Assembly (NCBI RefSeq): GCF_000564855.1
Contig: NZ_AYXG01000084.1
Location: 1 to 47,678, forward strand
Source: Actinokineospora spheciospongiae
GTDB taxonomy: Bacteria > Actinomycetota > Actinomycetes > Mycobacteriales > Pseudonocardiaceae
Length of the DNA stretch: 47,678 nucleotides
Direction of reading: 5' to 3'
A model generated the notes under the pieces. The model had not been told where the DNA came from. It searched no databases and was given only the letters and a program-made list of their open reading frames with translations. Position 1 is the first letter of the stretch. Every line of letters starts with the position of its first letter. The position numbers and the translations under genes are program-made. This document shows, one piece after another, positions 5,152 through 47,635 of the stretch.

Positions 5152-5157
5152 AGTATA
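5152..5157 (-). promoter_or_regulatory. -10 element upstream of the DUF1800-DUF1501 operon
   Basis: On the minus strand TATACT stands about 105 bp before the DUF1800 start, in a locally AT-rich patch. No good -35 box sits 17 bp upstream; a TTGATA is present at about 21 bp. The rest of 5045-5323 holds no gene that I can support. Confidence 0.4.
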
Positions 5158-5323
5158 TCAACGCCGTGACCGGGGCGTTATCAAGTCGAGACAACACCCC
5201 GGTTGCGCGGGCGACCGGTGGGCGTCATCCGAAGGTCAAGGGCGAACTCGTCGACGTCATCGGGTGGCTGGACGACACCCTCTCCACCTGCGCAGGAGTT
5301 GTCGGGCGGCCTTGGGGGCAGGG

Positions 5324-17881: not shown

Positions 17882-17890
17882 GGTTCCTCC

Positions 17891-19159: not shown

Positions 19160-19233
19160 GCCCCCGAGCATGGCGCGGCCGACCCCCACCGCGCAGGGTG
19201 CGGCGGGGGTTCTTCAGGTGATCCGCAGGGTCC

Positions 19234-28219: not shown

Positions 28220-28456
28220 CGACAACCTCCGCGTCCGACCTGCACCGACGCTGCCGAGGGTAGTTGAATTCGGACAAATGCGCCGCGCCCGGGGGTTGAC
28301 AGGGCCCGTTCGGGTGCCCTGAGCAGCAGGCGGTGGGCAAACCCTTGATCGACTCGGGTGAGGGGGCAACGGCGTGGTGGCGCGGCGGGAGAGCACGGGC
28401 CGTGAGGGGGTGGTGACCGCGAGTCCACACCGGACTTCCCCGGCGAGTCTCCCGGG

Positions 28457-28485
28457 TCCCGGCCCACCCACCGGGTGGGCCGGGA
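28457..28485 (-). terminator. Second hairpin of a tandem terminator
   Basis: A perfect 13-bp GC-rich stem (28457-28469 with 28473-28485, loop ACC) lies 4 bp beyond the first hairpin at 28490-28522. Together they should stop transcription from the lipid operon before TerC. The rest of the 28220-28538 gap shows no gene. Confidence 0.65.
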
Positions 28486-28489: not shown

Positions 28490-28522
28490 CGAAGGCCGCT
28501 CCCCGAGGGGGAGCGGCCTTCG
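28490..28522 (-). terminator. First terminator hairpin of the lipid operon
   Basis: A perfect 15-bp stem (28490-28504 with 28508-28522, loop GAG) lies 16 bp after the esterase stop codon. On the minus strand it is followed by TCGTTCC rather than a long T-tract. Confidence 0.8.
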
Positions 28523-28538: not shown

Positions 28539-29615
28539 TCAGATGCCGAGGCCCTTGGCCAGGACCGGCCAGGAGTTGTGCAGTGCGCGCTCCCAGTAGG
28601 GCCAGCTGTGGGTGCCCTTGCCGTAGTAGTCCACAGTGGCCGGGATACCGAGCTGCTTGAGCCGGTCGGTGAAGCTGCGCGAGGTCAGCAGCGTGGACGC
28701 GTCCAGCGGGTCGCCGCCCTTGCCGGGCGGGTCCAGCGGGCCCACCTCGCCGTTGCCAGAGCTGATGTAGAGGTTGGTGCCGCGGAACTTCTCGATGTTG
28801 TTGTACGGGTTGTGCGCCTGCCAGATCCAGAAGGTGACCATCTCGTCACCCCACAGGTCGGCCGGGTTCCAGAAGCCCTCGCGGACCAGGATGCCCTTGA
28901 TCACGCCCGCGGTGCCGACGAACATGGTGTTCGGGATGCCGCTGTAGGAGGCGACGGAGGCGAAGGTGCCGGGGAAGCGGAAGCCGTAGGCCAGGGCGCC
29001 GTAGCCGCCGATCGACACGCCCGCGACGGCGCGCTTGGTGCCGCCCTTGTAGCCGCGCTCGATGATCTGGAGGACCTCCTTCATGTGGAAGGCCTCCCAG
29101 TTCGCCGTCTTGCGCAGGCCGAGGTTCCACCACTCGGAGTACATGCCCGCCGGGCCGTCGGTGGGCATGACCGTGATGACGCCCTTGTCGGCGGTGAACG
29201 CCTTGGCGTCGGTCATGGAGTCCCACGACTTGTAGTCGAGGTCTTCGCAGCAGCCGTGCAGCAGCCACAGCTGCGGCCAGGTGCGGGTGGCCGTCGCCGA
29301 CCAGTCGGTGGGGAGGTAGACGCGGACCATGCCGTTCTTGAGCAGCGCCGGGCTCTGGATCTCCAGGTCCAGGGTGCGCTCGTCGATCCGGGTCTCCTTG
29401 ACGACCTTGGCGCCGTCGTCGGCGGTGACCTGGGGGGCGCCGGAGGGGAGGGTGGCCGCGGGGGCCGCGGTCGTGGTGGTCGGGGTGGGCTTGGTGGGCC
29501 ACCACGGCCACGCGGCGTTCGCCGGGCTCTGCACCAGGGTCGCCGACACCACAGTGGTCAGGACGACCGCCGCGCCCGCGATCACGCTGCGGCGTAAGCG
29601 GCGTGGGCGCGACAC
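28539..29615 (-). CDS. Exported antigen-85/esterase-D-like hydrolase
   Basis: The 358-residue protein has a Sec signal peptide (VSRPRRLRRSVIAG, a hydrophobic stretch, cleavage after ANA) and a Pro/Thr-rich linker (PTKPTPTTTT) suggesting wall residence. The alpha/beta-hydrolase domain belongs to the esterase D/antigen 85 group (PF00756): LHGCCEDLD oxyanion region, nucleophile Ser201 in GVSIGGYGA, and a C-terminal His in GKGTHSWPYWERAL, the position found in mycolyltransferases. It is the last gene of the FAAL-PKS-AccD operon, 54 bp after accD. By analogy with mycobacterial Fbp proteins it may transfer the lipid made by the PKS, or it may hydrolyse it. GTG at 29615 has AGAGG 5 bp upstream; ATG at 29639 is an alternative. 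Confidence 0.82.
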   Translation of the reverse strand: MSRPRRLRRSVIAGAAVVLTTVVSATLVQSPANAAWPWWPTKPTPTTTTAAPAATLPSGAPQVTADDGAKVVKETRIDERTLDLEIQSPALLKNGMVRVYLPTDWSATATRTWPQLWLLHGCCEDLDYKSWDSMTDAKAFTADKGVITVMPTDGPAGMYSEWWNLGLRKTANWEAFHMKEVLQIIERGYKGGTKRAVAGVSIGGYGALAYGFRFPGTFASVASYSGIPNTMFVGTAGVIKGILVREGFWNPADLWGDEMVTFWIWQAHNPYNNIEKFRGTNLYISSGNGEVGPLDPPGKGGDPLDASTLLTSRSFTDRLKQLGIPATVDYYGKGTHSWPYWERALHNSWPVLAKGLGI

Positions 29616-29669
29616 GTCACCTCTTTGTGTCCGTGGCATGGGCTGGCACTCCGTTCTTGTCACATTCCC

Positions 29670-31271
29670 CTACAGGGGGATGTTCCCGTGCTTCTTCGCG
29701 GGAAGGGTCTGCTTCTTGGTGCGGAGCGAGCGCAGCGCGCGGGCGACCTGGACGCGGGTCCGCGACGGCGGGATCACCATGTCGACGTAGCCGCGCTCGG
29801 CGGCGACGTACGGGGTGGTCTGCCACTGCTGGTACTCGTCGGTCAGCTTGCGGCGCAGCGCTTCCCGCTCGGGCTCGGGTGCGGCGTTGAGCTCGCGGCG
29901 GTGCAGGATCTGCACCGCGCCCTGCGCGCCCATCACCGCGATCTCGGCGGTGGGCCAGGCGATGTTGACGTCGGCGCCGAGGTGCTTGGACCCCATCACC
30001 GCGTACCCCCCGCCGTAGGCCTTGCGGACCACGACCGTCACCATCGGCACGGTCGCCTCGGAGTAGCTGTAGATCAGCTTGGCGCCGCGCCGGATGATCC
30101 CGCCGCGCTCCTGGTCCATACCGGGCATGTAACCAGGAACATCGACAAAGGTCACGAGGGGGATGTCGAACGCGTCGCAGAAGCGAACAAAGCGAGCTGC
30201 CTTCTCCGAGGCGTCGATGTCGATGACGCCCGCCTGGTGCAGCGGCTGGTTCGCCACCACGCCGACCGTGCGGCCCTCGACGCGGCCGAACGCGCAGATC
30301 ATGTTCCTGGCGAAGCCCGCGTGGATCTCGGTGAACTCGCCGTCGTCGAGGACCCGGCTGATGACCTCGTACATGTCGTAGCCCTGGTTTGGCGAGTCCG
30401 GGACGATCCGGTCGAGCACCCGGTCGGAGGCGGTGACCTCGGGGTCGCCGTCGAAGTCGTAGACCGGGGCGGGCTCGACGTTGTTCGCGGGCAGGTAGCC
30501 CAGCAGCGTCTGCACCCACTCGATGGCGTCGGGCTCGTCGACCGCGCGGTAGTGGGCGTTCCCGGAGACCTCGCTGTTGACCCCCGCGCCGCCGAGCTGG
30601 TCCTGGGTGACCCGCTGCCCGGTGACGGCGTTGACCACCTCGGGGCCGGTGACGAACATGTGCGAGGTGTCGTCGACCATGACGGTGAAGTCGGTCATCG
30701 CCGGGGAGTACACCGCCCCGCCCGCGCACGGGCCGAGGATCATCGAGATCTGCGGGATGACCCCGGAGGCGTGCGCGTTGCGCCTGCCCAGCTCGGCGTA
30801 GTACGCCAGGGAGACCACGCCCTCCTGGATGCGCGCGCCGCCGGAGTCGTTGATGCCGATGATGGGGCAGCCCAGGGTCATCGCCAGGTCCATCACCTTG
30901 AGGACCTTGCCGCCGAACACCTCGCCCATGCTGCCGCCGAAGACGGTGAAGTCCTGGGAGAACAGGCACACCTGGCGGCCGTCGATGGTGGCCTCACCGG
31001 TGACCACGCCGTCGCCGTAGGGGCGCTGGGCGTCCATGCCGAAGTCGGTGGTGCGGTGCCGGGTGAACATGTCCAGCTCGGTGAACGAGCCGGGGTCGAC
31101 CAGCAGGTCGATCCGCTCGCGCGCGGTGAGCTTGCCCTTGGCGTGCTGCCGGTCGGCCGCCCGCTTCTCGGCCAGGCGGACCACCTCGTCCTGCCTGCCG
31201 GTCAGGTCGGCGATGCGGTCGGCGGTCGTCGGGGCGAAGGAACGTCCGTCGAACTTGTCTTCTCCGAACAT
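29670..31271 (-). CDS. accD4: Acyl-CoA carboxylase carboxyltransferase subunit (AccD4-like)
   Basis: The 533-residue beta subunit transfers carboxyl groups from biotin to an acyl-CoA. The N-terminal half carries KLTARERIDLLVDPGSFTE, the oxyanion segment INDSGGARIQEGV and LGPCAGGAVYSPAMTDF. The C-terminal half has FVDVPGYMPGMDQERGGIIR, KAYGGGYAVMG and the final NIPL common in actinobacterial AccDs. It lies 60 bp downstream of the PKS, as accD4 follows pks13 in mycobacteria, where it makes the carboxyacyl-CoA extender. The AccA3-type biotin subunit is not in the window. ATG at 31271 has GGAAGG upstream. The AccD call is firm; the AccD4 label rests on context. Confidence 0.88.
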   Translation of the reverse strand: MFGEDKFDGRSFAPTTADRIADLTGRQDEVVRLAEKRAADRQHAKGKLTARERIDLLVDPGSFTELDMFTRHRTTDFGMDAQRPYGDGVVTGEATIDGRQVCLFSQDFTVFGGSMGEVFGGKVLKVMDLAMTLGCPIIGINDSGGARIQEGVVSLAYYAELGRRNAHASGVIPQISMILGPCAGGAVYSPAMTDFTVMVDDTSHMFVTGPEVVNAVTGQRVTQDQLGGAGVNSEVSGNAHYRAVDEPDAIEWVQTLLGYLPANNVEPAPVYDFDGDPEVTASDRVLDRIVPDSPNQGYDMYEVISRVLDDGEFTEIHAGFARNMICAFGRVEGRTVGVVANQPLHQAGVIDIDASEKAARFVRFCDAFDIPLVTFVDVPGYMPGMDQERGGIIRRGAKLIYSYSEATVPMVTVVVRKAYGGGYAVMGSKHLGADVNIAWPTAEIAVMGAQGAVQILHRRELNAAPEPEREALRRKLTDEYQQWQTTPYVAAERGYVDMVIPPSRTRVQVARALRSLRTKKQTLPAKKHGNIPL

Positions 31272-31331
31272 CACAGCCTTCCTTCCTCACTCAGGTCATC
31301 AGGGGCACTCGGGTGGGGTGTTCCGTTGTTC

Positions 31332-34300
31332 CTAGTGAGCTGGTGAGCGCGGGTGGTCGAGTGCGGCGCGCAGCTCCCGCGCGATGACGGCGACGTTCGG
31401 CGGGTCGATCATGCTGAGGTGGTCGCCGGGGACCTTGACCACCTCGAGGGCGGGGGCGAACTCGTCCCAGCCCAGGGTGTCGTCGGTGCGCTTGTAGCGC
31501 GGGTCGAGCTGCGTGGTGAGCGGGTGCGGCTCCTTGGCGCGGAACAGCACGACCCGGCCGCCGTAGGGGCGCGGCTGGTAGTTCTCCGCGACCCGGGCGT
31601 CCACGTAGGACGTGTACTGGTGGTGCAGCACCGCGGCGCCCATGCCGGAGACGTTGGCCGCCAGGGTGTCGATGATGTAGCGGATCTGCTGCTCGTCGTC
31701 GAGGCCGCCGAGCTTGTCCGCGCCGAGGTCGAGCTTGACGCCGTAGGTCTCCTCGATGTGCTCGGCGAAGCGGCTGAACCGGTCGAGGATCAGGTCCTGC
31801 TGCGAGATCGGCTCGGCCGATTCCAGCGGCAGGATCGTGTCGATCATGGCGACCAGCTCGACGTGCTCGCCCGCGGCGGTGAGCAACTGGGCGATCTCGT
31901 AGGACAGCATCCCGCCGAAGGACCAGCCGCCGAGCCGGTACGGCCCGCTGGGCTGGACCTCGCGCAGCAGCTCCAGGTAGCGCCGCGCCTTCTCCTCCAG
32001 CGTGTCCACGTCGTCGAGCCGCTCGAACCCGTAGACCGGCACGCCCTCGCCCATGAGCTGCACCAGCGAGCGGTAGACGCTCGTCGGGCCGCCCGCGGGG
32101 TGGAACAGGAAGACCGGGGTGCCGGTCTCGCAGGCCCGCAGGACGCGCAGCGGCTTGCCGCCGTTGCCCTCCACCTGGTCGCGCAGCAGGTCGGCCATGG
32201 CCGCCACGGTGGGCTCGCTGAACAGCGTGCCGTAGTCGGGCACCGAGTCCAGTTCGCGTTCGATGGCGGCGTAGACCGCGTCGGCCTGGGCGGCGTCGCC
32301 GAGGGCGAAGAAGTTGTCGTCGACCCCCGGTTCCCCGCTCTCCAGCACGTCCTGCCAGATCCGGGCAACCCACCGCTCGGACGGGTCGCGCGGGCCGACC
32401 TTCGCCGGGGCGCTGCCCGGCTTGCGGGCGGCCCGGTCGGCCGGGTCGGCCTCGCCGAGGCCGGACGCCTCGGCCAGGTGGTCGGCGATCTCGGCGAGGC
32501 TGGCGCCGCGCAGCAGCAGCGGCACCGGCAGCGGCAGCCCGAAGTCGCGCTCGACCGCGCCCCGGGCCCGCATGGCCAGCAGCGAGTCGAGGCCGAGCTG
32601 GGTCAGCGGCACGTACCGGTCGATCCGCTCGGCGGCGAAGCCCATCAGCTCGGCGATGATGGCCACCAGGTGGTCCTCCAGCGCCTGCCGGGCCGCGGCG
32701 GGTTCCAGCGCGCGCAGCTCGGACATGCCCGCCCAGGCGGGGCCGCCGGTCTCGGCCGCCTGCTCGGCGGGCCGGACCAGCTCGAAGAACGGGCGGGTGG
32801 CCAGTTGCGGGAACAGCGACATGGTGGTGCCCAGGTCGAGCCGGGCGATGCCGGTCGCGGCCCGGCCGCTGGCCAGCACCGCCTCCAGCGCCTCCATGCC
32901 CTCCTGCGGGCCGAGCGGGTCGAGCACCGGGTTGTCCCGGCCCACGGCGCCGCCGACCTCGGCCCACGCGCCCCAGTTGACGGTGGTGGCGGTCAGGCCC
33001 CGGGACCGGCGCCAGGTCACCAGCGCGTCGAGCCAGGCGTTGGCGGTGGCGTAGGCGCCCTGGCCGGGCGAGCCGAACAGCGCGGCGGCCGAGGAGTACA
33101 TGAGCCACCAGTCCAGGTCGTGGCCCAGGGTCGCCTCGTGCAGCGCGAGCGCGCCGGTGGCCTTGGCGTGCCAGACCTTGGCGACGTCGGCACCGTCCAG
33201 GGTGGCGGTGGCGCCGTCGGCGAGGACACCGGCGGCGTGCAGGACACCGCGCAGCGGGACACCACCGGCGGTGGCGGCGGCGACCAGCCGGTCGGCCACC
33301 CCGGCCTCGGCGACGTCGCCCGCGACGACCTCGACCTCGGCACCGAGGCCGCGCAGCTCGGCGACCAGCGGTTCGGTCTCCTCGGTCAGGCCGCGGCGGC
33401 CGGAGAGCACGACGCGGGTGGCGCCGTTCTCCGCGAGCCACTTGCCCGCGAGCAGGCCCAGTCCGCCGAGACCACCGGTGACGACGTAGCCGCCGTCGCG
33501 GACGGTGTGCCCCTCGCCGCGCTCGTCGACCTGCTCATCGATCTCGGCCTTGGCGAGCTTGGCGATGTGCCGCGCGCCGCCGCGCCAGGCGACCTCGTCG
33601 GCGGCGTCGTCGGCGGTCAGCTCGGCGGCCAGTTCGGCGACCCAGTCCCCCTCGACATCCAGGTCCAGGGCCGTGGCGCGCAGTTCGGGGTTCTCGAAGG
33701 CGAGGACCCTGGCCAGGCCGCGCAGGGCGGCGAGGTCGGGCGAACCGGCCTCGTCGGCGCCGACCGCGGCGGCGCCGCGGGTGACGATCCACAGGCGCGG
33801 AGGCTGCCACCCGGGGTCGACCTGGTCGGTGAGCTGCGCCACCAGGCTCGACACGGCGAGCACGTGCGCCTGCGCCGCCTCGGGGGAGAGCCCGGTGCCG
33901 GGTTCGGCCACGAACACCACGCCCGCCGGGGTGCGCCCGGCCAGGGTGAGCTGGTCCACGCGCGGCAGGCACAGCACCTCCCCGCCGGGGAGCCGGTCGC
34001 GCAGCCCGGTCAGCCAGTCGCCCGGCTCACCCTCGGCCACGACCACCCAGGTCTGCCCGTCGGCGGCGGTGTCGTCGAGGTCCCCCCGCTCCCAAGAAGC
34101 CTCGAAGGCCTTGGCGGACAACGGGAGCGGCACCGACGAGCGCTGCATCCGGCGCACGTAGACACCGGCGACGTCGACGACGACCGCCCCGTCCGCGTCG
34201 ACCAACTGCACGGCGCCGACCAGGCCGTCGAGCCCCTCGTCGAGGGAGTCCAGCCGGGCGTCGACGCGCACGGCGGTGCCCGGGTCGCCGAGGACCCGGA

Positions 34301-37300
34301 CCGCGCCGAGCGACAGCGGCAGGTAGGTGCCGCCGCCCGCGCTGATCCGGTCGAACGCGGCGGCGGCGAGCGCGTGCAGGCTCGCGTCCGACAGCGCCGG
34401 GTGCAGCACGTGACCGGTCGCGCGCCCGGCTTCCTCGGGCAGGGCGATGGCGGCGGAGGCGGTGCCGGAGCCCGCCACCACCGACCGCAGGCCGCGGAAG
34501 GCGGGGCCGTAGGCCTGGCCCATCTCGGCCAGCGCCGGGTAGAGGTCGACGGCCCGGCCGTCGGTGGTCTCCCCCAGCGGGGTCACGGCGGCGTCGCCGC
34601 GGCGCACGGTGGCCGAGGCGTGCCGGGTCCAGGTGCCCGCCGCCGACTTGGCCGAGACGGTGACGACGCCGGCGTGCTTGCCGGTGAGCGTCAGCGAGGT
34701 GGTGATCTCGGTGTGCGCGGCCAGCGGCAGGACCTGGGTGAGTTCGACGTCGCGGACCTCGACGAGGACCTTGCCGCCGAAGGCTTCCCGGGCGGCGGCG
34801 AGCGCCAGTTCCAGGTAGCCGGTGCCGGGGAAGATCGCCACGCCGTGCGCGGCGTGGTCGCTCAGCCACGGGTGGGCGTCGGTGCCGACGTCCGCGCGCC
34901 AGACGTGCCGGTCGCCCTCGGGCAGTTCGATGTGGACACCCAGCAGCGGGTGCCGCCCGGCCGGGGCGGTCGCCGAGGCGCGCTTGCGCGGCCAGAAGGC
35001 GTGGTGCTCCCAGCGCGGGCCGGGCAGCGAGACCGGCGGGGCCGCGGCGTGCCGGGCGGCCAGCGCGGTCGGGTGCCCGGTGGTGTGCAGGGCGGCGAGG
35101 CTGGTGAGGAACGTGGTGCGCTCGTCGTCCTTGCGGTGCGCGCTGGGCAGCCCCAGCACGGTGACGTTGCGGGCGCCACCCGCGGTCTGCTCCAGTGCCG
35201 CGAGGGCGATCGGGTGCGGGGAGACCTCGACGAACCGGGTGTGCCGGTCCTCGATCGCCGCGGACAGCGCGTGCGCGAAGCGGACCGGGCGGCGCAGGTT
35301 CTTCACCCAGTACTCGACGTCGAACGCGGGCGCTTCCCTCGGGTCGTCCAGCACGCTGGTGTAGCAGGGCACGGTGGCCCGGCTCGGCTCCAGGTCCGCC
35401 AGCCCGGCGCGGAACTCGTCGAGCACCACGTCCACCGCGGGCGAGTGCCCGGCGCCGCCGACCTTGAGGCGCCGCGCCAGGCGGCCCATGCCCTCCACGT
35501 GCGCCACCAGCGCGCCCACCTGGTCGGCGTCGCCGCTGACGGTGCACTGGGTGGGCGAGGCGTAGACGGCCACGGTGATGCTGGGCCACTGGGCCTCCAG
35601 CTCGGCCAGCTCCGCCGGGGACAGCTCGACCACGGCCATGGCGCCGACCCCGGAGGCGTCGATGCCCGAGAGCAGCCGGGCGCGGGTGGTCATCACCCGC
35701 AGGCCGTCGGCGACGGTGAGCGCGCCCGCGACGACCGCGGCGGCGACCTCGCCCATGGAGTGCCCGACCACGGCGGCGGGTTCGACGCCGTGCGCGCGCC
35801 ACAGCGCGGCGAGGGCGACCTGGATGCCGAACAGGGTGGGCTGGGTGGCGGCGAGGTCGGGAAGCTGCTGCTCCCCGGCCAGCACCGCGCGCAGCGAGAA
35901 TCCGGTGACCTCGACGAAGGCCGGGTCCAACTCCTCCACGGCGGCGCGGAAGGCGGGTTCGGTGGCCAGCAGCGTGCGGCCCATCCCGTCCCACTGCGAG
36001 CCGTAGCCGGAGAAGACGAACACCACGTCGCTGTCATCGCGCCGGGCTGTGCCGGTGCGCACGTCCGGGCGGGGCTCCCCGGCGCCGAGCGCGCGCAGGG
36101 CGTCCACGAGGGACTCGCGGCCGGTGCCGACGACGGCGCCGCGCACGGCCAGGTGCTCGCGGCGGCGGGCCAGGGTCGAGGCGACCGCGCCGAGCGCGAC
36201 CCCCGCGTTCTCCTCGGCGGCGAGCCAGTCGGCCAGGTCGGTCGCGCGCTGGGCCAGCGCGGTCGCCGAGCGGGCCGACAGCGCCAGCACGTGCGTGTCC
36301 CGGTCGTCGCCGCGCGGCACGCGCTTGCGCTTGGCGGGCCACTCCTCCAGCACCACGTGGGCGTTGGTGCCGCCGAAGCCGAACGCGGACACGCCCGCGC
36401 GGGCCAGGCCGGAGTAGCGCGGCCACGGGGTGGGCTCCGGGATGACCCGCAGGCCGTTGCCGTCGAAGTCGATGTTCGGGTTGGGCGCGGTGTAGTGCAG
36501 GCTGGCCGGGAGCCGCCCGTGCTTCATCGCCAGCACGACCTTGATCAGACCCGCGATGCCCGCGGCGCCCTCCAGGTGCCCCAGGTTGGACTTCACCGAG
36601 CCCAGCAGCAGCGGGCGGTCGGCGGCGCGGTCCCTGCCGAGCACCGCGCCGAGCGCGCCCGCCTCGATCGGGTCGCCGAGGAAGGTGCCGGTGCCGTGCG
36701 CCTCGACGTAGTCCACACCGGACGGGTCCAGTTCGGCCACCGAGTAGGCGTCGCGCAGCAGCGCGGCCTGCGCGTCGGGGTTGGGCGCCATCATGCCGTT
36801 GGAGCGGCCGTCGGAGTTGACCGCGCTGGCGCGGATGACCGCGAGCACCCGGTCGCCGTCGCGGCGGGCGTCGGTCAGCCGCTTGAGCACGACCACGCCG
36901 CAGCCCTCGCCGCGCACGATGCCGTCGGCGGCGGCGTCGAACGCCTTGCACCTGCCGTCGGCGGCCAGCACGCCCGCGCTGGTGAAGTTGGCGAACACCG
37001 CGGGCGAGAGCAGCAGGTTGACCCCGCCGACCAGGGCGTGGTCGGTCTCACCGCGCTGCAGGCTCTGCACGCCGTGGTGCACGGCGACCAGCGACGACGA
37101 GCACGCGGTGTCGACGGTCATGCTCGGGCCGCGCAGGTCCAACTGGTACGACAGCCGGTTGGCGGCGATGCTCGCCGCCGCGCCGGTGCCCGACCACGCG
37201 TCGATGGTGGGCAGGTCGACCATGGTCAGGTGGCCGTACTCGGTCGCGGACAGTCCCACGAAGACACCGGTGCGGCTGCCGCGCAGCGAGGCGGGCGCGA

Positions 37301-37883
37301 TGCCCGCGTCCTCCAGCGCCGCCCAGGAAACTTCCAGCAGCAGCCGCTGCTGCGGGTCCATCGCCTCGGCCTCGCGCGGGGTGATGCCGAAGAACGCCGC
37401 GTCGAACCCGGCGACGTCGTCGAGGAAGCCGCCGAGGCGGGGCAGGCCGTCGAGGTCGGCGGCGGGCGCGAAGTCCTCCCACCGGCCCGCGGGCACCTCG
37501 GAGATGGCGTCCTGGCCCGCGGACAGCAGCGACCAGAACGCCTCCGGCGAGTCGACGCCCCCGGCCAGCCGCACACCGAGGCCGACGACCGCGACGGGCT
37601 CGCCGGGCGCGACCGCGGCCGCGACCAGGGGCTGGTCGCGGCCGGTGTCCTCGCCGGTGAGCGCGGCCACCAGCGCGGAGATCGTCGGGCTCTCCCAGGC
37701 CAGCGTCGGCGGGAGTGGTCTGCCGAGCAGCTTGCCCAGGTCACCCGAGAGCGTCACCGCGTCGCGGGAGGACATCCCCAGTTCGGTCAGCGGCCGGTCC
37801 GGGTCCACTTCCCCGACCGGGAGGTTGCGCAGTTCGGCGACCCGACCCACCAGCCAGGCGAGCAGGTTCTCCTGGGAGGTCAT
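31332..37883 (-). CDS. Pks13-like type I polyketide synthase with added DH and KR
   Basis: This 2183-residue megasynthase has domains in order: N-terminal ACP (Ser39 in GMSSRDAV); KS (about 90-515; Cys261 in DTACSSS, then EAHGTGT and KSNLGH); AT (about 590-890; Ser709 in GHSMGEV, specificity loop GAGHS at about 812, neither YASH nor HAFH); DH (about 965-1235; His1010 in HAAHGVAIFP, Asp1166); KR (about 1465-1650; GGLGGLG, Tyr1611); ACP2 (Ser1767 in GLDSLLAM); a carrier-like domain (about 1830-1895) reading FFALGDAAQ without the serine; and TE (Ser1988 in GWSFGG). There is no ER or methyltransferase. An N-terminal ACP fed by an adjacent FAAL, plus a terminal TE, is the Pks13 design; DH-KR is extra. 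Its ATG overlaps the FAAL stop (ATGA). Confidence 0.9.
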   Translation of the reverse strand: MTSQENLLAWLVGRVAELRNLPVGEVDPDRPLTELGMSSRDAVTLSGDLGKLLGRPLPPTLAWESPTISALVAALTGEDTGRDQPLVAAAVAPGEPVAVVGLGVRLAGGVDSPEAFWSLLSAGQDAISEVPAGRWEDFAPAADLDGLPRLGGFLDDVAGFDAAFFGITPREAEAMDPQQRLLLEVSWAALEDAGIAPASLRGSRTGVFVGLSATEYGHLTMVDLPTIDAWSGTGAAASIAANRLSYQLDLRGPSMTVDTACSSSLVAVHHGVQSLQRGETDHALVGGVNLLLSPAVFANFTSAGVLAADGRCKAFDAAADGIVRGEGCGVVVLKRLTDARRDGDRVLAVIRASAVNSDGRSNGMMAPNPDAQAALLRDAYSVAELDPSGVDYVEAHGTGTFLGDPIEAGALGAVLGRDRAADRPLLLGSVKSNLGHLEGAAGIAGLIKVVLAMKHGRLPASLHYTAPNPNIDFDGNGLRVIPEPTPWPRYSGLARAGVSAFGFGGTNAHVVLEEWPAKRKRVPRGDDRDTHVLALSARSATALAQRATDLADWLAAEENAGVALGAVASTLARRREHLAVRGAVVGTGRESLVDALRALGAGEPRPDVRTGTARRDDSDVVFVFSGYGSQWDGMGRTLLATEPAFRAAVEELDPAFVEVTGFSLRAVLAGEQQLPDLAATQPTLFGIQVALAALWRAHGVEPAAVVGHSMGEVAAAVVAGALTVADGLRVMTTRARLLSGIDASGVGAMAVVELSPAELAELEAQWPSITVAVYASPTQCTVSGDADQVGALVAHVEGMGRLARRLKVGGAGHSPAVDVVLDEFRAGLADLEPSRATVPCYTSVLDDPREAPAFDVEYWVKNLRRPVRFAHALSAAIEDRHTRFVEVSPHPIALAALEQTAGGARNVTVLGLPSAHRKDDERTTFLTSLAALHTTGHPTALAARHAAAPPVSLPGPRWEHHAFWPRKRASATAPAGRHPLLGVHIELPEGDRHVWRADVGTDAHPWLSDHAAHGVAIFPGTGYLELALAAAREAFGGKVLVEVRDVELTQVLPLAAHTEITTSLTLTGKHAGVVTVSAKSAAGTWTRHASATVRRGDAAVTPLGETTDGRAVDLYPALAEMGQAYGPAFRGLRSVVAGSGTASAAIALPEEAGRATGHVLHPALSDASLHALAAAAFDRISAGGGTYLPLSLGAVRVLGDPGTAVRVDARLDSLDEGLDGLVGAVQLVDADGAVVVDVAGVYVRRMQRSSVPLPLSAKAFEASWERGDLDDTAADGQTWVVVAEGEPGDWLTGLRDRLPGGEVLCLPRVDQLTLAGRTPAGVVFVAEPGTGLSPEAAQAHVLAVSSLVAQLTDQVDPGWQPPRLWIVTRGAAAVGADEAGSPDLAALRGLARVLAFENPELRATALDLDVEGDWVAELAAELTADDAADEVAWRGGARHIAKLAKAEIDEQVDERGEGHTVRDGGYVVTGGLGGLGLLAGKWLAENGATRVVLSGRRGLTEETEPLVAELRGLGAEVEVVAGDVAEAGVADRLVAAATAGGVPLRGVLHAAGVLADGATATLDGADVAKVWHAKATGALALHEATLGHDLDWWLMYSSAAALFGSPGQGAYATANAWLDALVTWRRSRGLTATTVNWGAWAEVGGAVGRDNPVLDPLGPQEGMEALEAVLASGRAATGIARLDLGTTMSLFPQLATRPFFELVRPAEQAAETGGPAWAGMSELRALEPAAARQALEDHLVAIIAELMGFAAERIDRYVPLTQLGLDSLLAMRARGAVERDFGLPLPVPLLLRGASLAEIADHLAEASGLGEADPADRAARKPGSAPAKVGPRDPSERWVARIWQDVLESGEPGVDDNFFALGDAAQADAVYAAIERELDSVPDYGTLFSEPTVAAMADLLRDQVEGNGGKPLRVLRACETGTPVFLFHPAGGPTSVYRSLVQLMGEGVPVYGFERLDDVDTLEEKARRYLELLREVQPSGPYRLGGWSFGGMLSYEIAQLLTAAGEHVELVAMIDTILPLESAEPISQQDLILDRFSRFAEHIEETYGVKLDLGADKLGGLDDEQQIRYIIDTLAANVSGMGAAVLHHQYTSYVDARVAENYQPRPYGGRVVLFRAKEPHPLTTQLDPRYKRTDDTLGWDEFAPALEVVKVPGDHLSMIDPPNVAVIARELRAALDHPRSPAH

Positions 37884-39673
37884 GCGGGGCGTCCGTCCTT
37901 GAGGGTGCCCTCGGCCCAGCGCTTGCGGCACACCGCGCGGCTGACCTTGCCGCTGGAGGTGCGCGGGACGCCACCGGGCTCGACGATGAGCACGTCGTGC
38001 AGGGACAGGCCGTGGTGGTGCGACACCGCGGCCTTGACCGCGCTGGTGACCTCGTCGCGGTCGAGGTCGGCGGCCTCGACGACCTTGGAGCGCTCCACCA
38101 TCACCATGACCTGCTCGGACTGGCCGTCGAACACCGAGAACGCCACCAGCGAGTGCTTGCGCACCGCCGGGTGCGCCTGCTCCACGGTCGCCTCGATGTC
38201 CTGCGGGTAGTGGTTGCGGCCGTCGACGATGATCAGGTCCTTCATCCGGCCGGTGATGTAGAGGTCGCCCTCGTGCAGCACGCCGAGGTCGCCGGTGCGG
38301 AACCAGCCGCGGCCGTCGACGCCGGAGCCGTCGAAGCCGTCGTCCTCCAGGGTCTGGCCGAAGGACTCGGCGGTCTGCTCCGGGCGGTTCCAGTAGCCCT
38401 GGGCGATGTTGACGCCGCTGAGCCACAGCTCGCCGACCACGCCCTCGTCGAGCAGCTTGCCCGACTCCGGGTCGACGATCCGCAGTTGCTGGTCGAACGC
38501 CCGGCCGCAGGAGACCAGCTCGGTGGTGCTCGGGGTCTGCGCGGTGGCGACCACGGCCAGGCCGCGGGTCAGCGCCTCGCGGTCGAAGGTGACCGCCTTG
38601 GGCAGCTCGCCCGGGGTGCCCGACGAGATCAGCACGACCGCCTCGGCCATGCCCATCGACGGGCGGTGGGCGGTGCGCGGCAGGCCGCACTCGGCGAACG
38701 CGTCGGCGAAGCGGTTGATCGACTTCATGCTGATCGGCTCGGAACCGTCCACCAGCGACACCACGTCGGACAGGTCCAGGAACGCCTTCTCCCGGTCGCT
38801 GACCCGCGACGCGGCGTAGGCGTAGGCGAAGTTCGGCGCGGCGGTGGTGGCGCCCTCCGCGTTGGCCATCGCCGCGACCCAGCGGATCGGGCGCTCCAGG
38901 AAGGCGATCGGGTCCATCATCACGACCGGGCGGCCCGACCACATCGGCACGGCCACCGCGAGCACCAGGCCCATGTCGTGGAACAGCGGCAGCCAGCTCA
39001 CCAGGGTGCCGTAGTCGTCCTCGTCGGTCATGTAGCACTCGGTGTTCTGCCGGGCGTTGGTCACCACGTTCCGGTTGGTGATCATCACGCCCGCCGGGAT
39101 GCGGGTGGACCCGGAGGTGTACTGCAGGTACGACACGGCGTCGGGCTCGGGCACGAACGGCGCGTAGTCGGCGGCCCTGGAGTCGGGCACGGTGTCGATG
39201 GAGGTGACGTGGGCGACCCCGATGCCCTTCTCGGCGAAGTAGGAGTCGAGCAGTTCGCGCTGGTCGTCCAGGGTGAGCGCCAGGGTCGGGGAGCAGTCGG
39301 CGAGCACCGCGGCCAGCCGGTCGGCGTGCCCCGGCAGGTCCGGCTGGAACAGCGGAACCGCGATCCGGCCCGCGCGCATGGCCGCGAGCAGCGCCACGAC
39401 GTACTCGGTGGACTGCCGGGCCAGGATGACCACCCGGTCGCCCTCGGCCGTGTGCGCCTGCACCTCAGCGGCGACCGCGCTGACCTTGGTGTCGAACTCC
39501 GACCAGGTCAGCGAGGTGGCGACACCGTCGACGCTGAAGCGGTAGTCCAGGTAGGTGATGGCGACCTCGTCGCCGTGCTCCTGCGCCCACCAGGCCAGCA
39601 GGGTCGCCAGGGAGTCGTTGCCGACCACCGGCCCCGCCACGGGGCTGTCGGTCCGCACACCACCAGAAGTCAT
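37880..39673 (-). CDS. fadD32: Fatty acyl-AMP ligase (FadD32-like)
   Basis: The 597-residue adenylating enzyme activates a long-chain fatty acid as acyl-AMP and should load it on the N-terminal ACP of the next gene's PKS. Visible are the ATP P-loop YLQYTSGSTRIPAG (about residue 165), LPLFHDMGL, the A5 region SMGMAEAVVLIS, GWFRTGDLGVLHEGDLYITG, the hinge GRMKDLIIVDGRNHYPQDIE and the C-terminal catalytic Lys in PRTSSGKVSR. FAALs carry a short insertion that disfavours CoA transfer; length and PKS partner fit. Position directly before a Pks13-like gene with ATGA overlap mirrors mycobacterial fadD32-pks13. ATG at 39673 has GAGGACGG upstream, and a promoter lies about 140 bp upstream. Confidence 0.9.
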   Translation of the reverse strand: MTSGGVRTDSPVAGPVVGNDSLATLLAWWAQEHGDEVAITYLDYRFSVDGVATSLTWSEFDTKVSAVAAEVQAHTAEGDRVVILARQSTEYVVALLAAMRAGRIAVPLFQPDLPGHADRLAAVLADCSPTLALTLDDQRELLDSYFAEKGIGVAHVTSIDTVPDSRAADYAPFVPEPDAVSYLQYTSGSTRIPAGVMITNRNVVTNARQNTECYMTDEDDYGTLVSWLPLFHDMGLVLAVAVPMWSGRPVVMMDPIAFLERPIRWVAAMANAEGATTAAPNFAYAYAASRVSDREKAFLDLSDVVSLVDGSEPISMKSINRFADAFAECGLPRTAHRPSMGMAEAVVLISSGTPGELPKAVTFDREALTRGLAVVATAQTPSTTELVSCGRAFDQQLRIVDPESGKLLDEGVVGELWLSGVNIAQGYWNRPEQTAESFGQTLEDDGFDGSGVDGRGWFRTGDLGVLHEGDLYITGRMKDLIIVDGRNHYPQDIEATVEQAHPAVRKHSLVAFSVFDGQSEQVMVMVERSKVVEAADLDRDEVTSAVKAAVSHHHGLSLHDVLIVEPGGVPRTSSGKVSRAVCRKRWAEGTLKDGRPA

Positions 39674-39818
39674 CGTGTCCCGTCCTCGGGGTTGTCAGGG
39701 GTTCGAACGCCCGCCGCTGAACATTCGACCGGAATTCAGATTGCGGCCAAATGTGAATCGACAATTGAGGTCCGACAGATCCGGTCGATCTGAGAATAGA
39801 ATTCGACCACCCACCGCC

Positions 39819-39848
39819 ACCATATTTTCCGGTGCCACGGGGTGTCAA
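39819..39848 (-). promoter_or_regulatory. Promoter of the FAAL-PKS-accD-esterase operon
   Basis: On the minus strand TTGACA (39843-39848) and TATGGT (39819-39824) are separated by 18 bp, close to the housekeeping sigma consensus. The transcript would start near 39812, giving a leader of about 140 nt before the FAAL start. The 351-bp gap 39674-40024 is markedly AT-richer than its surroundings and holds only this promoter and the terminator of the R2lox gene. Confidence 0.7.
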
Positions 39849-39990
39849 CCATTCGGGTTTACGCCACAAACGCCCAATTGCATAAAACAATGTTTCTTAG
39901 CGTTCGGAGGTGAAAACTCGCGCCCTCGTTGTCAACGCGGTGACAAGTCATCCACCCTCCCGACCACTCGTACGACCCACGCGCCCCGCC

Positions 39991-40018
39991 GCACCCCGCG
40001 GGCGCGCCCGCGGGGTGC
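39991..40018 (-). terminator. Terminator hairpin after R2lox
   Basis: A perfect 13-bp GC-rich stem (39991-40003 with 40006-40018) with a 2-base apex lies 6 bp after the R2lox stop codon. No T-tract follows. Confidence 0.65.
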
Positions 40019-40024
40019 CGCCGA

Positions 40025-40990
40025 TCACCCCTGGGCCGCCGCGGCGGTGTCCTCGGTGTGGAACTGCTCTTCGAGCTGCTCGGGGCTGTAGTCCAGGTCG
40101 ATCGCGGCCACGGACATGCCGCGCGCGCCCTCGATCGCCCCGAGCCTGCGCAGCGCGTGGTTGCCCGCGTACTCCATGACCCCGTCGAGCTTCATGTCGA
40201 ACGGGTCGCCGTCGAACTGCTTGGTCGTCCACTCGATCTGGGTGATCGCGTGCGGCAGCAGCCGCTGCATCTCGTCCTGCACGATCTGCCAGTTCGCGTC
40301 GTCGGCGGCCACGTGCCTGCGGCAGGTGAAGGTGCCCCAGGCCATGTGGCGGCGCTCGTCGTTGCCGATCGAGCGGATGAGCTGCTGCAACCCGGGCAGG
40401 ATGCCGTTGCTGCGGCAGGCCGCGTTCCACACGTGGTAGCCGGTGAGCGCCAGCACGCCCTCGACCACGTGGTTGTAGACCACCGAGGCGCGCACCTGGT
40501 TGGCCGGGCTCGGGTCGGAGGAGAGCCGGTGCAGGGCGTTGGGCAGGGCGTCGTAGAAGATCGCCCGGTAGCCGGGGTTCTCCTCGACGTGGGAGTGCAG
40601 GTCCTCCTTGACCCCCACCGCGTCCAGCCACAGCCGGAAGGCCTGGGTGTGCTTGGCCTCCTCGAACAGGAATTGGGTCAGGTACATCTCGTCGCCGAAG
40701 CGGCCCTCGGCGCCCATGGCCTGGATGAACGGCTGGATGTCCTGGGTGACGGCCTCCTCGCCGCCGACGAACTGGGCGCAGAGCATGGTGGCGATGAAGC
40801 GCTGCTCGTCGTTGAGGTTGGCCCAGTCCTCGGCGTCCTGCGAGAAGTCGATGGCGGCGGGGTCCCAGAAGCGGCGGTTGCCCTTGGCGAACAACCGCAG
40901 CGGCAGGGAGTCCCAGTCCATTCCGGCCTTGCTCAGTGAGTGGAACTGCGTCCGGCGCTCGGTGGCGGCCTGCTCGCTGACGTCGGTCAC
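40025..40990 (-). CDS. R2-like ligand-binding oxidase (R2lox)
   Basis: The 321-residue ferritin-fold protein has the complete R2lox metal site: Glu78, Glu111, His114, Glu177, Glu212 and His215, from GGEEAV, FEEAKH, NHVVEG and NDERRH. It also keeps Val81 and Tyr172, the pair that forms the Val-Tyr ether cross-link typical of R2lox; all sit at a constant offset of +10 from the Mycobacterium tuberculosis Rv0233 numbering as I recall it. R2lox assembles an Mn/Fe cofactor and binds a long-chain fatty acid in known structures; its reaction is unsettled. It is often annotated as ribonucleotide reductase beta, which these features argue against. GTG at 40990 has GAAGGAG upstream. Confidence 0.9.
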
Positions 40991-41033
40991 GGGACTAACT
41001 CCTTCAGGTGTTCTCGGGGAGGGTCGAGCGGGG

Positions 41034-42653
41034 TCACCCGGCGAACGGGACATCGATCCAGGACGGGTCCGCGGGCGAGGACAGGAAGCCCAGCTTGCCG
41101 CCGTCGGTGTTCTTGTCGATGAACAGCGCGTCCTTGGAGTCGACCACCAGCGCGAGCCGGTGCCCGGCGGCGAGGTTGTACGCCGTGGGGGTGAACCGCA
41201 GGTCGAGCGGCAGCGGTGCGCCGGGGGTCGCGCCGCGCCAGGTGTAGGGGGTGTAGTTGATCAGCTTGCCGGTGCCGAACCGGTCGACGTCGTAGACGTA
41301 GGCCACGACGGTGCCCTGCGCCTTCGGGGGGCTCACGACCAGGTGGGCGGTGATGTAGCCGCGGATCTTCTGCGCCGAAGCCGCCTTGGGGCCGTTCCAC
41401 ATGCCGCCGCTGGAGCGGTCGAGCACCTGCAGCATCGCCGTGGGCGGGTTGCCGCTGAGCGCCTCCAGGCTGTAGGTCGCCAGCGGGATGCCCCCGTTGG
41501 CCAGGGTGTCCTTGTTGGCGTTGACCTCGGTCTTCCACGCCGCCGGGGGCGCCGAGGGCAGTAGCTGGGCGTCGCCGCCGAACATCCCGGCGGGCTTCGC
41601 GCCGAGGTAGAGCTTCTGCTGCCGCTGGCCCTGCACCGCGGCCCAGTCGCCCGCGGGCTCGGCCTTGTTGGTGCCCGGCCGCGGCACGACCTGGATCGGG
41701 GCCTCGGCGGCGATCGCGGTGTCGGTGCCCGCCACGTGGGCGTCGAACCAGCGGTAGACCGAGTTCCACACCCCGCTGGGCAGGCCGAGCAGGCCGCCGG
41801 ACTCGGTGGCGGCGTGGTCGCCGGGCAGGATCTCCAGGCGCTTGGGACCGGTGAGCTGGGTGTACAGGTCGGCCATCTGACCGGGCTCGAAGACGGTCTC
41901 GCTCCAGGTCTGGATCATCAGCGTCGCGGGCTGGTTGCGGTTGATCTCGGCGACCCGGTTGATCGGCGACCGCTGCTGCGACCACGCCTTGATCGCGTCG
42001 TCCTGCGCGTCGGTGAGGTTCGGGTCGTAGATGCCCGCGAGCATCTGGTCGGACTCGAAGCTGAGCCTGCCGTTCTGCTTGCCGGACAGGTGCAGGACCA
42101 GGGCGGTGAGGCTGTGCCGGGTGTTCTCGGTCGACAGCGACCGCACCAGGTCGCTCCAGCCGCTCATCGAGGCCACGGCCTTGATCCGCGGGTCGGTGCC
42201 GGAGGCGAGGACGCCGATGCCCGCGCCGTAGGACACGCCCGCGACCCCGATCCGGTTCGGGTCGGACTCGGTGTTGGCCAGGCCCCAGTCGATGACGTCG
42301 GAGACGTCGGTGAGGTCCTGCCTGCCCGCGACCTGCACTTCGCCGCCGGACTCGCCGAAACCGCGGGTGCCGTAGGCGAGCACGGTGTAGCCCTTGTTCG
42401 CCAGGTTCACCGCGGGGACGGTGTTCTGCGTGACCCCACCGCCCCAGGCGCTGATGACGATCGCCAGCGGGTGCGGACCGGGCGACTTCGGTTCCATCAC
42501 CATCGTCCGCAGCAGGACACCGTCCCGCGCGGGCAGGTCCACGAAGCGGGTGTCGAACCCGCTCGCCTGCGCCCCGAAGGCACCGGGCACCCAGGCCACC
42601 AGTGCGGCGAGCATGGCGACCGCCGCGAGCACCGCGGCACGTTTGCGCGACAT
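41034..42653 (-). CDS. Exported CocE/PepX-type serine hydrolase
   Basis: The 539-residue protein begins with a signal peptide ([15 protein letters not shown], cleavage near GAQA). An alpha/beta-hydrolase domain follows with [12 protein letters not shown], nucleophile Ser141 in [10 protein letters not shown], Asp in the [11 protein letters not shown] region and His in [12 protein letters not shown]. The C-terminal 200 residues form a jelly-roll domain of the PepX/CocE kind (about residues 340-539). Family members are X-Pro dipeptidyl peptidases or esterases; the N-terminal signal puts it outside the membrane. It lies 43 bp upstream of R2lox on the same strand and they probably share a transcript. 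ATG at 42653 is chosen; 42665 is possible. Confidence 0.83.
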
Positions 42654-42780
42654 CCGAACACCCATTCCGATGTGACGAAGAATTCCCACGCCGCCGTGAA
42701 TGGCATTGACGATTCGGCCAAAAGCATTCAGAGAAGGCACAGGAACAAACCGCATTCCTTTATAAAACACCGACAATGGA

Positions 42781-42809
42781 AAGGTAGCATCGGTAAAATT
42801 TTGGGTCAA
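42781..42809 (-). promoter_or_regulatory. Promoter of the CocE-R2lox unit
   Basis: On the minus strand TTGACC (42804-42809) and TACCTT (42781-42786) are separated by exactly 17 bp, in an AT-rich region. The start would be near 42774, leaving a leader of about 120 nt. Confidence 0.65.
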
Positions 42810-42986
42810 GACTGAGGAGAGACCGATACAGATCTTGCGGTTGACACACAAAAAACTCCCGAACCCTGCTCACGATCGAAGCAGCCCAAAACGTGAAAAA
42901 AACCCGAGTGGTCTTCACTTCCGACCGGTTGTCGCCACGCGGAGTCACCTCGGACACACCGGCCGAGACCAGCGGCGCAGGGTTGG

Positions 42987-47302: not shown

Positions 47303-47412
47303 CGATGCTCCTCGTGGCAGGGTTGCACGCCCGGGTCGAGCGGGGACACGCCCCAACCGGGCCCCACGAGCATCCGCACCCGGCACAGCACGGGTCAACA
47401 CGGCGGCGGAAT

Positions 47413-47431
47413 CCGTCAAAGAACCGTCAAA
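47413..47431 (-). promoter_or_regulatory. Direct-repeat box upstream of the protease gene
   Basis: CCGTCAAA occurs at 47413-47420 and again at 47424-47431, an 11-bp period (TTTGACGG on the minus strand), about 110 bp before the protease start. Such spacing is typical of OmpR-family or other dimeric activator sites. A further TTGACC is at 47394-47399. The 47303-47678 gap has no supported gene. Confidence 0.45.
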
Positions 47432-47555
47432 CCCCCTGACGGCACAACGCAAACCGGTCAACACGGCAAATCCGACACCGAGACCCGCCAACGTAGCCGC
47501 CGACCACCCGACACACCGACACACCGACGGCCCGGCGACTCGGCCACACAAACGC

Positions 47556-47587
47556 CGGGCAGGCGGATGCGCGGGCAGGCGGATGCG
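47556..47587. repeat. 16-bp perfect tandem repeat
   Basis: CGGGCAGGCGGATGCG is present twice head-to-tail (47556-47571 and 47572-47587). The surrounding sequence resembles the repeat at 47636-47660, so this is part of the same intergenic repeat family. Confidence 0.75.
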
Positions 47588-47635
47588 ATTGGCCAGCCGG
47601 CCACCCCCGAAACCGGCGGCCCGACCAAGCAAACG

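What the first reader, a model, noticed from the sequence alone, without database searches (positions are those of the whole stretch)
28539..42809. Mycolate-type condensation locus with an unusual, reductive Pks13-like synthase
FAAL, PKS with an N-terminal ACP and C-terminal TE, AccD4-like carboxyltransferase and an Ag85-fold exported esterase follow one another as in the mycobacterial fadD32-pks13-accD4 region. Mycobacterial Pks13 is ACP-KS-AT-ACP-TE; here a DH (His1010, Asp1166) and a KR (Tyr1611, intact Rossmann motif) are inserted. Ketoreduction is a separate enzyme in mycolate synthesis. The predicted product is a long-chain alpha-branched beta-hydroxy or alpha,beta-unsaturated acyl chain, released or transferred by TE and delivered outside by the esterase. 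No other mycolate genes are in the window. This may be a distinct branched-lipid system.
Basis: partly seen in the sequence, partly recalled or inferred. Interest (0 to 1): 0.82.

Follow-up and report, generated by a model that had tools for sequence, protein, structure and literature searches.

The report
Reducing sister of mycolate synthase Pks13
A soil bacterium from a group not known to make mycolic acids carries a close relative of the enzyme set that builds the mycobacterial outer coat, with two extra enzyme domains that the mycobacterial enzyme appears to have lost, so it may show where mycolic acid synthesis came from.

Summary
[quoted passage not shown] The PKS is ACP-KS-AT-DH-KR-ACP-inactive ACP-TE, catalytic residues as stated. 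The genome is Actinokineospora (Pseudonocardiaceae, reported to lack mycolates). KS, AT and FAAL trees put the locus with Pks13/FadD32. It is not a one-off: 43 of 74 named loci hold all four genes (27 in Amycolatopsis; also Saccharopolyspora, Frankia). The 'inserted' DH and KR are probably original: Pks13 keeps a dead half-dehydratase (published as DH*) that matches this family's DH at 96.8% profile probability (controls 13.1% or less) and shares the inactive ACP. A wider KS tree nests Pks13 inside the reducing forms, but a smaller tree does not, and an AU test does not decide (p 0.178). KR-less and DH/KR-less relatives exist. Predicted product (inferred): a 2-alkyl-2-enoyl lipid handed on by the TE and the exported transferase. 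Function is untested.

The parts
41034..42851 (-). S15/CocE-type hydrolase with a signal-peptide-like N-terminus (ORF; true start probably further inside); overlaps R2lox by 20 bases
   Evidence: Pfam PF02129 106 bits, PF08530 58 bits; TIGR00976 105 bits, cut-off 66; next to R2lox in the 9 locus-linked cases
40025..41053 (-). R2-like ligand-binding oxidase (R2lox)
   Evidence: NF006199 541.6 bits, cut-off 286; best solved relative 7qbp R2lox 483 bits; locus-linked set apart at 100/98
37880..39673 (-). Fatty acyl-AMP ligase, close to FadD32
   Evidence: FadD32 model 564 bits, cut-off 975; top PDB hits are FadD32-type ligases; tree 91/84
31332..37883 (-). Type I PKS, 2183 aa: ACP-KS-AT-DH-KR-ACP-inactive ACP-TE
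37650..37871 (-). N-terminal ACP (Ser38), approximate limits
36129..37601 (-). KS (Cys261) with C-terminal extension
   Evidence: PF00109 310 bits; trees
35076..36023 (-). AT (Ser709; GGAGHS motif)
   Evidence: PF00698 291 bits; motif count; tree
34140..34952 (-). DH, His1010 and Asp1166 present
   Evidence: PF21089 85 bits, PF14765 97 bits; N-half of the family's DH matches the Pks13 AT-ACP stretch
32958..33494 (-). KR, Tyr1611 and Asn1615 present
   Evidence: PF08659 184 bits
32475..32672 (-). C-terminal ACP (Ser1767)
   Evidence: Ser in 70 of 70 aligned relatives
32199..32405 (-). Inactive ACP (GDAAQ, no serine), approximate limits
   Evidence: aligned with the serine-less stretch of Pks13
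31374..32117 (-). Thioesterase (Ser1988, His2155), Pks13-type, approximate limits
   Evidence: PF00975 81 bits; tail matches Pks13-type synthases in f8 genomes
29670..31274 (-). Acyl-CoA carboxyltransferase with Ala at the position recalled as PccB Asp422
   Evidence: PF01039 630 bits; Ala in 20 of 20 locus rows and 4 of 4 rows from Pks13 loci
28539..29663 (-). Exported Ag85/PS1-fold acyltransferase
   Evidence: PS1 6sx4 161 bits, Cmt1 84, Ag85A 66; GVSIGG and GTHSWPYW present; signal-peptide-like start (by eye)
28491..28521 (.). G+C-rich perfect hairpin after the esterase, terminator-like
   Evidence: sequence read

Best explanation
The locus is a Pks13-type lipid-condensation system that kept its reducing domains. 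Inferred mechanism: the FAAL activates a long fatty acid as acyl-AMP and loads it on the N-terminal ACP, then the KS. The carboxyltransferase, with a biotin carboxylase from elsewhere, makes a 2-carboxyacyl-CoA with a side chain larger than methyl, which the AT puts on the C-terminal ACP. One condensation gives an alpha-alkyl beta-keto acyl chain. Unlike Pks13, the same enzyme then reduces it (KR) and dehydrates it (DH) to a 2-alkyl-2-enoyl chain. The TE passes this to an acceptor, and the exported Ag85/PS1-fold protein moves it to a final acceptor at the surface. In this genome an R2lox of a locus-linked type and a secreted S15-type hydrolase accompany the pathway, and R2lox probably oxidises the acyl chain. 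In evolution this reducing form is the older one; Pks13 lost the KR and half the DH and kept a dead DH stub, after which a separate reductase was needed. Shown here: gene order, domains, residues, trees, remnant. Inferred: substrates, product, acceptor, direction of loss, role of R2lox and S15.
For: KS tree 97/91, AT tree 98/100, FAAL tree 91/84 join the locus with Pks13/FadD32; reference rows L075, L077, L078 are Pks13 by NCBIfam (2583, 2240, 2800 bits; cut-off 2100). The 4 Pks13 loci fetched (L075-L078) hold relatives of the same four genes. Both synthases have a serine-less carrier stretch before the TE (PMC11649247 passages). A cryoEM study describes in Pks13 a dead domain, residues 1074-1172, equal to the N-terminal half of a DH (PMC11649247 passages). 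The AT-ACP stretch of 20 Pks13-type synthases matches the DH N-half of the long synthases at 98.3% profile probability, 96.8% with the post-AT linker cut off; controls: DH C-half 13.1, KR 0.1, KS-AT 0.2, TE 0.3, reversed 7.2, 40 column shuffles at most 1.9. A wider KS tree nests Pks13 inside long synthases (96/83, 88/79, 93/88). AT motif xGAGH in 25 of 38 long and 7 of 9 Pks13 rows, 0 of 21 others (some rows repeat a locus, one 'other' row, L082, is a long synthase). Carboxyltransferase Ala as in the Pks13 loci.
Against: In the first, smaller KS tree the long rows form one side of a branch next to Pks13 (86/75; 88% of 200 bootstrap trees), and in the wider tree the AU test does not reject long plus short forms as one clade (p 0.178), so the nesting is not proven. 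The carboxyltransferase is overall nearer to PccB and 5inf than to AccD4; its tree does not resolve a tie to AccD4. The DGxR-type motif seen in L075-L078 reads HGCC in the esterase, so the acceptor may not be trehalose. The trait is patchy (45 of 150 family genomes), which suits an accessory or secreted lipid as well as a wall component. Of 36 non-Pks13 loci, carboxyltransferase lies in the stretch in 25, esterase in 26, all four genes in 17. S15 and R2lox join only a minority (9 of 74 named loci). Against single DH sequences the Pks13 profile scores weakly (window DH 18.9%).
Confidence: 0.62

Rival explanations
1. Secondary-metabolite locus: the enzymes make a small diffusible lipid (signal, siderophore tail, antibiotic) and the esterase and hydrolase are maturation or self-protection enzymes, not envelope builders.
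For: Patchy distribution, 45 of 150 family genomes; several copies in one genome (G200 three, G090 three matches); a gene cluster whose scanned representative is an MFS transporter occurs in 19 of 40 neighbourhoods; the genome is PKS-rich (62 matches to the KS family, weak ones included).
Against: KS, AT and FAAL group with Pks13/FadD32; the window holds one KS match only and no NRPS domain was found in the ORFs scanned; a relative of the exported mycolyltransferase-type enzyme lies in 59 of 74 named loci.
Confidence: 0.22
2. DH and KR were inserted into a Pks13-like ancestor, and the DH-like stub of Pks13 is unrelated to them.
For: The smaller KS tree has the long rows on one side of a branch (86/75); the AU test does not reject one clade of long and short forms (p 0.178).
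Against: The stub matches this family's DH N-half and not the other parts; KR-less (L236, L238) and DH/KR-less (L183) relatives exist; the outside PKS L187 also has a KR and a weak DH match.
Confidence: 0.13
3. The synthase works iteratively like mycocerosic acid synthase and makes a multiply methyl-branched unsaturated acid for an acyl-trehalose-like lipid.
For: The best single PDB score for the PKS is MAS (1003 bits against 932 for Pks13).
Against: No ER domain; the AT motif is not the YASH type; Ala at the carboxyltransferase position points away from propionyl-CoA (meaning recalled); the MAS match includes the DH that Pks13 lacks.
Confidence: 0.15

Closest known systems
Pks13 (mycolic acid condensase) with FadD32, AccD4 and Ag85 of mycolate-producing actinobacteria
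   Same: Gene set; N-ACP-KS-AT, C-ACP, serine-less carrier and TE; KS, AT and FAAL close; Ala at the carboxyltransferase position.
   Different: Complete DH and KR here; below the Pks13 and FadD32 model cut-offs; host group reported to lack mycolates (PMC6194230); R2lox and S15 genes added.
PKSs named 'phthiocerol/phenolphthiocerol synthesis type-I polyketide synthase D' in Amycolatopsis and other records
   Same: Among the 120 listed homologues several bear this name and share the domain set.
   Different: The name is the sources' own; KS and AT trees place this synthase with Pks13, apart from the FAAL-linked PKS cluster of G207, which I take (recalled) for Pps-like.
Mycocerosic acid synthase (MAS) and Pks2
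   Same: KS-AT-DH-KR order; MAS is the best PDB score, 1003 bits.
   Different: No ER, has N-ACP, inactive ACP and TE; Pks2 model 1191 bits against a cut-off of 2400.
R2lox of M. tuberculosis and Geobacillus (GkR2loxI, reported alkane hydroxylase, PMC10867098)
   Same: R2lox model over cut-off; PDB 3ee4 421 bits.
   Different: Belongs to a set tied to this lipid locus and separate from the other 21 R2lox treed.

Membership tests
Pks13 (NF040607) | Curated score of at least 2100 bits | tested here: not met
   1384.9 bits; three Pks13 rows 2240-2800
Pks13 (NF040607) | No working DH or KR between AT and ACP | tested here: not met
   DH and KR complete with catalytic residues; activity not shown
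Pks13 (NF040607) | KS and AT group with Pks13 | tested here: met
   97/91 and 98/100
Pks13 (NF040607) | Condenses two long chains and passes the product to trehalose | not testable with these tools
   needs biochemistry
FadD32 (NF038339) | Curated score of at least 975 bits | tested here: not met
   564 bits; two FadD32 rows 1108 and 1214
AccD4 | Groups with AccD4 among carboxyltransferases | tested here: inconclusive
   unresolved tree; PDB scores favour the PccB type
AccD4 | Ala at the position recalled as PccB Asp422 | tested here: met
   20 of 20 locus rows, 4 of 4 rows from Pks13 loci; Asp, Cys or Ile in 11 of 13 other rows, Ala in L296, Tyr in L301. Also Ala in 5inf and 3ibb; three otherwise alike PccB chains read Ala, Val and Leu there, recalled as engineered. 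So the residue is not specific to AccD4
Ag85/PS1/Cmt mycolyltransferases | Fold by sequence, GxSxGG serine and GTHSW histidine | tested here: met
Ag85/PS1/Cmt mycolyltransferases | DGxR motif (its role at the trehalose site is recalled) | tested here: not met
   HGCC in the window; DG[ML]R in L075-L078
R2lox | Curated R2lox model | tested here: met
   541.6 bits, cut-off 286
Mycolate pathway as a whole | Separate mycolate reductase (CmrA) and MmpL3 in the genome | tested here: inconclusive
   11 MMPL domain matches in the own genome, none assigned to MmpL3; CmrA was not searched

The most novel reading that the evidence does not exclude
Mycolic acid synthesis arose by decay of a reducing lipid synthase of this kind. 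The intact ancestor-like system survives in Pseudonocardiaceae and Frankia and makes a dehydrated mycolate analogue (2-alkyl-2-enoyl lipid) that an Ag85-type enzyme attaches at the surface of bacteria reported to have arabinogalactan but no mycolates. A dedicated R2lox oxidises its acyl chain.
Probability: 0.33. Interest if true: 0.9.

Novelty: new variant of a known kind. Interest (0 to 1): 0.74.

Why it matters
It gives a testable origin for mycolic acids: Pks13 would be a stripped-down reducing synthase, which would explain its dead dehydratase and dead carrier domain. It predicts a class of alpha-branched lipids in a large group of antibiotic producers. It also gives R2lox, an oxidase whose natural substrate is still debated, a pathway in which to look for it.

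Tried and rejected
Considered and rejected or left open: (1) KS/FAAL belonging to ordinary modular PKS: the trees say no. (2) Carboxyltransferase as a plain AccD4: similarity says no; one pocket residue agrees, but it is not specific. (3) R2lox as a chance neighbour: 8 of 150 family genomes have it within 10 kb of the synthase tail on one contig, a ninth (G294) has it at a contig edge; the 9 are set apart in the tree; my own rough estimate of chance neighbours is about 0.1. (4) MmpL as a constant partner: a relative of the L066 MmpL is in 7 of 74 named loci and a few others. (5) Structured RNA in the window: none over Rfam's gathering score. (6) tRNA: none.

Results against my reading: long rows on one side of a branch in the first KS tree (86/75); AU test p 0.178; L066 and L074 have ATs outside the Pks13 group; 6 of 16 other FAALs fall among the locus FAALs and FadD32; single-sequence DH comparisons are weak: family members and the likely member L185 3.4-63.5%, other DHs 0.2-1.6%; Ala at the carboxyltransferase position also in non-AccD4 proteins.

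Rows chosen or dropped before counts: the trees used 25 of the 36 non-Pks13 loci plus the window; near-duplicate loci were left out. One 'otherPKS' row (L094) is a second copy of a Pks13. One search used 19 of 74 named loci, 8 of 20 Pks13-type and 5 short forms. 4 of 74 named loci (L200, L248, L262, L265) gave no PKS long enough to align, so residue counts there are of 70. L061 and L063 (DH residues lost) were left out of the DH profile. Only three of the 20 Pks13-type synthases were scored with the Pks13 model. The R2lox tree holds the loci of the 30 best matches given, not every match.

Not done: no structure prediction, no scan of viral contigs or metagenome contigs, CmrA and biotin carboxylase not searched, DH and KR not traced by their own trees. 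The names of families f2, f9 and f13 are not known to me; f8 is called mycolate-type because the three of its synthases scored are Pks13. Amycolatopsis for genus code g3 rests on matching contig lengths.
Full report
WHAT IS THERE. The window is contig C83 of a 7.5 Mb genome. Its PKS tail is 98% identical to a protein of Actinokineospora sp. PR83, so the organism is most likely an Actinokineospora, family Pseudonocardiaceae. On the minus strand, in order of transcription, lie an S15/CocE-type hydrolase, R2lox, a FAAL, a PKS, an acyl-CoA carboxyltransferase and an Ag85/PS1-fold esterase. S15 and R2lox overlap by 20 bases, 351 bases separate R2lox from the FAAL, FAAL and PKS overlap by 4 bases (ATGA), and a hairpin follows the esterase. 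The next gene downstream is a TerC/Alx metal-transport relative.

THE PKS. It has 2183 residues. Pfam gives KS, AT, DH (both halves), KR, two PP-binding stretches and TE. Ser38, Cys261, Ser709, His1010, Asp1166, Tyr1611, Asn1615, Ser1767, Ser1988 and His2155 are in place; the third carrier domain has Ala1864 where a serine belongs. In the 70 of 74 named loci that could be aligned, DH His is kept in 69, DH Asp in 66, KR Tyr in 63, C-ACP Ser in 70; the third carrier has a serine in that column in 2 (2 more have gaps).

KINSHIP WITH PKS13. The tail of the PKS (ACP, inactive ACP, TE) was searched in 298 genomes of the order: 84 match at 1e-40, of which 24 are in the own family, 53 in family f8, 2 in f2, 4 in f13 and 1 in f9. 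In f8 there is one match per genome save one genome with two, with open frames of at most 2013 codons; the three of these synthases scored are Pks13 by NCBIfam. The KS tree (55 rows) joins Pks13 and the long synthases at 97/91 and leaves out the other PKSs sampled; the nearest outsider is L083 beside a FAAL in G207. The AT tree gives 98/100 for Pks13 with 24 long rows; the ATs of L066 and L074 fall outside. The FAAL tree gives 91/84 for FadD32, the 26 locus FAALs and 6 of 16 other FAALs against the rest. The window PKS and FAAL score below the Pks13 and FadD32 cut-offs (1385 of 2100 and 564 of 975 bits), so they are relatives, not members.

DIRECTION OF CHANGE. A 2024 cryoEM paper on Mt-Pks13 (PMC11649247; passages seen) reports a non-functional ACP before the TE and a catalytically dead domain at 1074-1172 that equals the N-terminal half of a dehydratase. 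The passages seen give no evolutionary explanation, and words beginning 'vestigial' or 'ancest' do not occur in its main text. I aligned the AT-ACP stretch of 20 Pks13-type synthases and compared it with parts of the long synthases. DH N-half: 98.3%, and 96.8% over 83 columns once the shared linker was cut off; the catalytic-histidine stretch falls in a gap. Controls: DH C-half 13.1, KR 0.1, KS-AT 0.2, TE 0.3, KR structural part 0.1, reversed 7.2, 40 column shuffles at most 1.9. With single sequences the signal is weaker. In the first KS tree the long rows are one side of a branch (86/75). A wider KS tree (60 rows) nests Pks13 within the long synthases (96/83, 88/79, 93/88), but an AU test does not reject one clade of long plus short forms (p 0.178). 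Other stages of loss exist: four Solirubrobacteraceae/Patulibacter MAG loci lack the KR by length, and the two scanned have a DH but no KR; L061 and L063 lack the DH catalytic residues but keep the KR Tyr (L061 scanned); five Amycolatopsis-type loci (L072, L073, L182-L184) have neither DH nor KR in the alignment to this PKS (L183 scanned). Loss in Pks13 is the better reading, not insertion here, but it is not settled.

SUBSTRATES AND PRODUCT (inferred). The AT motif is xGAGH in 25 of 38 long and 7 of 9 Pks13 rows and in none of 21 other rows (some rows repeat a locus, and one of the 21, L082, is a copy of a long synthase). The carboxyltransferase has Ala where 4 own-kind propionyl-type rows have Asp, in 20 of 20 locus rows and 4 of 4 rows from Pks13 loci; the own-genome L296 and the solved 5inf also have Ala (the meaning of the position is recalled). 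This suits an extender larger than methylmalonyl. With KR and DH present the expected product is a 2-alkyl-2-enoyl chain. Pks13's TE is stated to load mycolate onto trehalose (PMC11649247); the same is possible here. The esterase keeps the serine and histidine motifs but not the DG[ML]R stretch seen in L075-L078, so its acceptor may differ.

DISTRIBUTION. Of 36 non-Pks13 loci fetched, FAAL is near the PKS in 36, carboxyltransferase in 25, esterase in 26, all four genes in 17. Of 74 named loci from genome contigs, FAAL is found in 71, carboxyltransferase in 54, esterase in 59 and all four in 43: Amycolatopsis 27, Actinokineospora 5, Saccharopolyspora 5, Streptoalloteichus 2, Herbihabitans, Frankia, Parafrankia and Streptomyces 1 each. 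Saccharothrix, Kutzneria, Actinopolyspora, Pseudofrankia and MAGs of Solirubrobacteraceae and Patulibacter have part of the set. The scan used two short peptide patterns, so it is not a census. Of 150 family genomes 45 have the tail at 1e-60, in 18 of 46 genera. Pseudonocardiales and Actinopolysporales are reported to include arabinogalactan producers and to lack mycolic acids (PMC6194230; passages, section 8).

R2LOX. 84 of 150 family genomes have an R2lox at 1e-70. In eight (G000, G200, G132, G335, G376, G388, G323, G347; four genus codes) it lies within 10 kb of the synthase tail, and in G294 at a contig edge. In these nine an S15-type gene is next to it. Among named loci S15 and R2lox occur together in 9 of 74 and never singly. 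In a tree of 30 R2lox the nine locus-linked ones are separated from the 21 others at 100/98. GkR2loxI was reported to co-purify with hydroxy fatty acids and to hydroxylate alkanes (PMC10867098; passages). Oxidation of the acyl chain is thus a fair guess, no more.

LITERATURE. Searches for Pks13 with Amycolatopsis (6 papers), Pseudonocardia (3), Frankia (1) and pseudo-dehydratase (1), for R2lox with polyketide synthase (1) and with gene cluster (3), for mycolyltransferase with Amycolatopsis (0), for fatty acyl-AMP ligase with Saccharopolyspora (8), for Actinokineospora with mycolic acid (21, 10 listed) and for mycolic acid with Pseudonocardiales and related words (114 held four of five terms, 20 listed) gave no title or abstract start that describes this locus. 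Passages were also seen of PMC12159101 and PMC7413640, neither about it. The library holds open-licence papers only, so this does not show that it is unpublished.

VERDICT. A real, conserved locus; a reducing relative of Pks13; product and function untested.

Noticed in passing
window 40025-42851: S15-type secreted hydrolase and R2lox form a pair that joins the synthase locus in Actinokineospora, some Amycolatopsis and Saccharopolyspora.
   Followed up: yes
window 27215-28471: TerC/Alx-family metal-homeostasis membrane protein directly downstream of the locus; R2lox uses Mn/Fe, so a link is conceivable. No riboswitch over the Rfam threshold in the window.
   Followed up: partly
window 1999-5197 and 16634-19189: Two separate DUF1501-DUF1800 gene pairs.
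   Followed up: no
window 44369-47632: One ORF holds both thermolysin (M4) and M28 peptidase domains.
   Followed up: no
L236, L238, L240, L245: Solirubrobacteraceae/Patulibacter MAG synthases shorter between AT and ACP; the two scanned have a DH but no KR, a possible stage between the long form and Pks13.
   Followed up: partly
L183:8705-12907, L072, L073, L182, L184: Amycolatopsis-type synthases without DH and KR, with a FAAL and an Ag85-like gene nearby, and in L183 and L073 a glycosyltransferase.
   Followed up: partly
genome contigs C103, C154, C144: The own genome holds one more long synthase locus (C103) and related FAAL and KS pieces on C154 and C144.
   Followed up: partly
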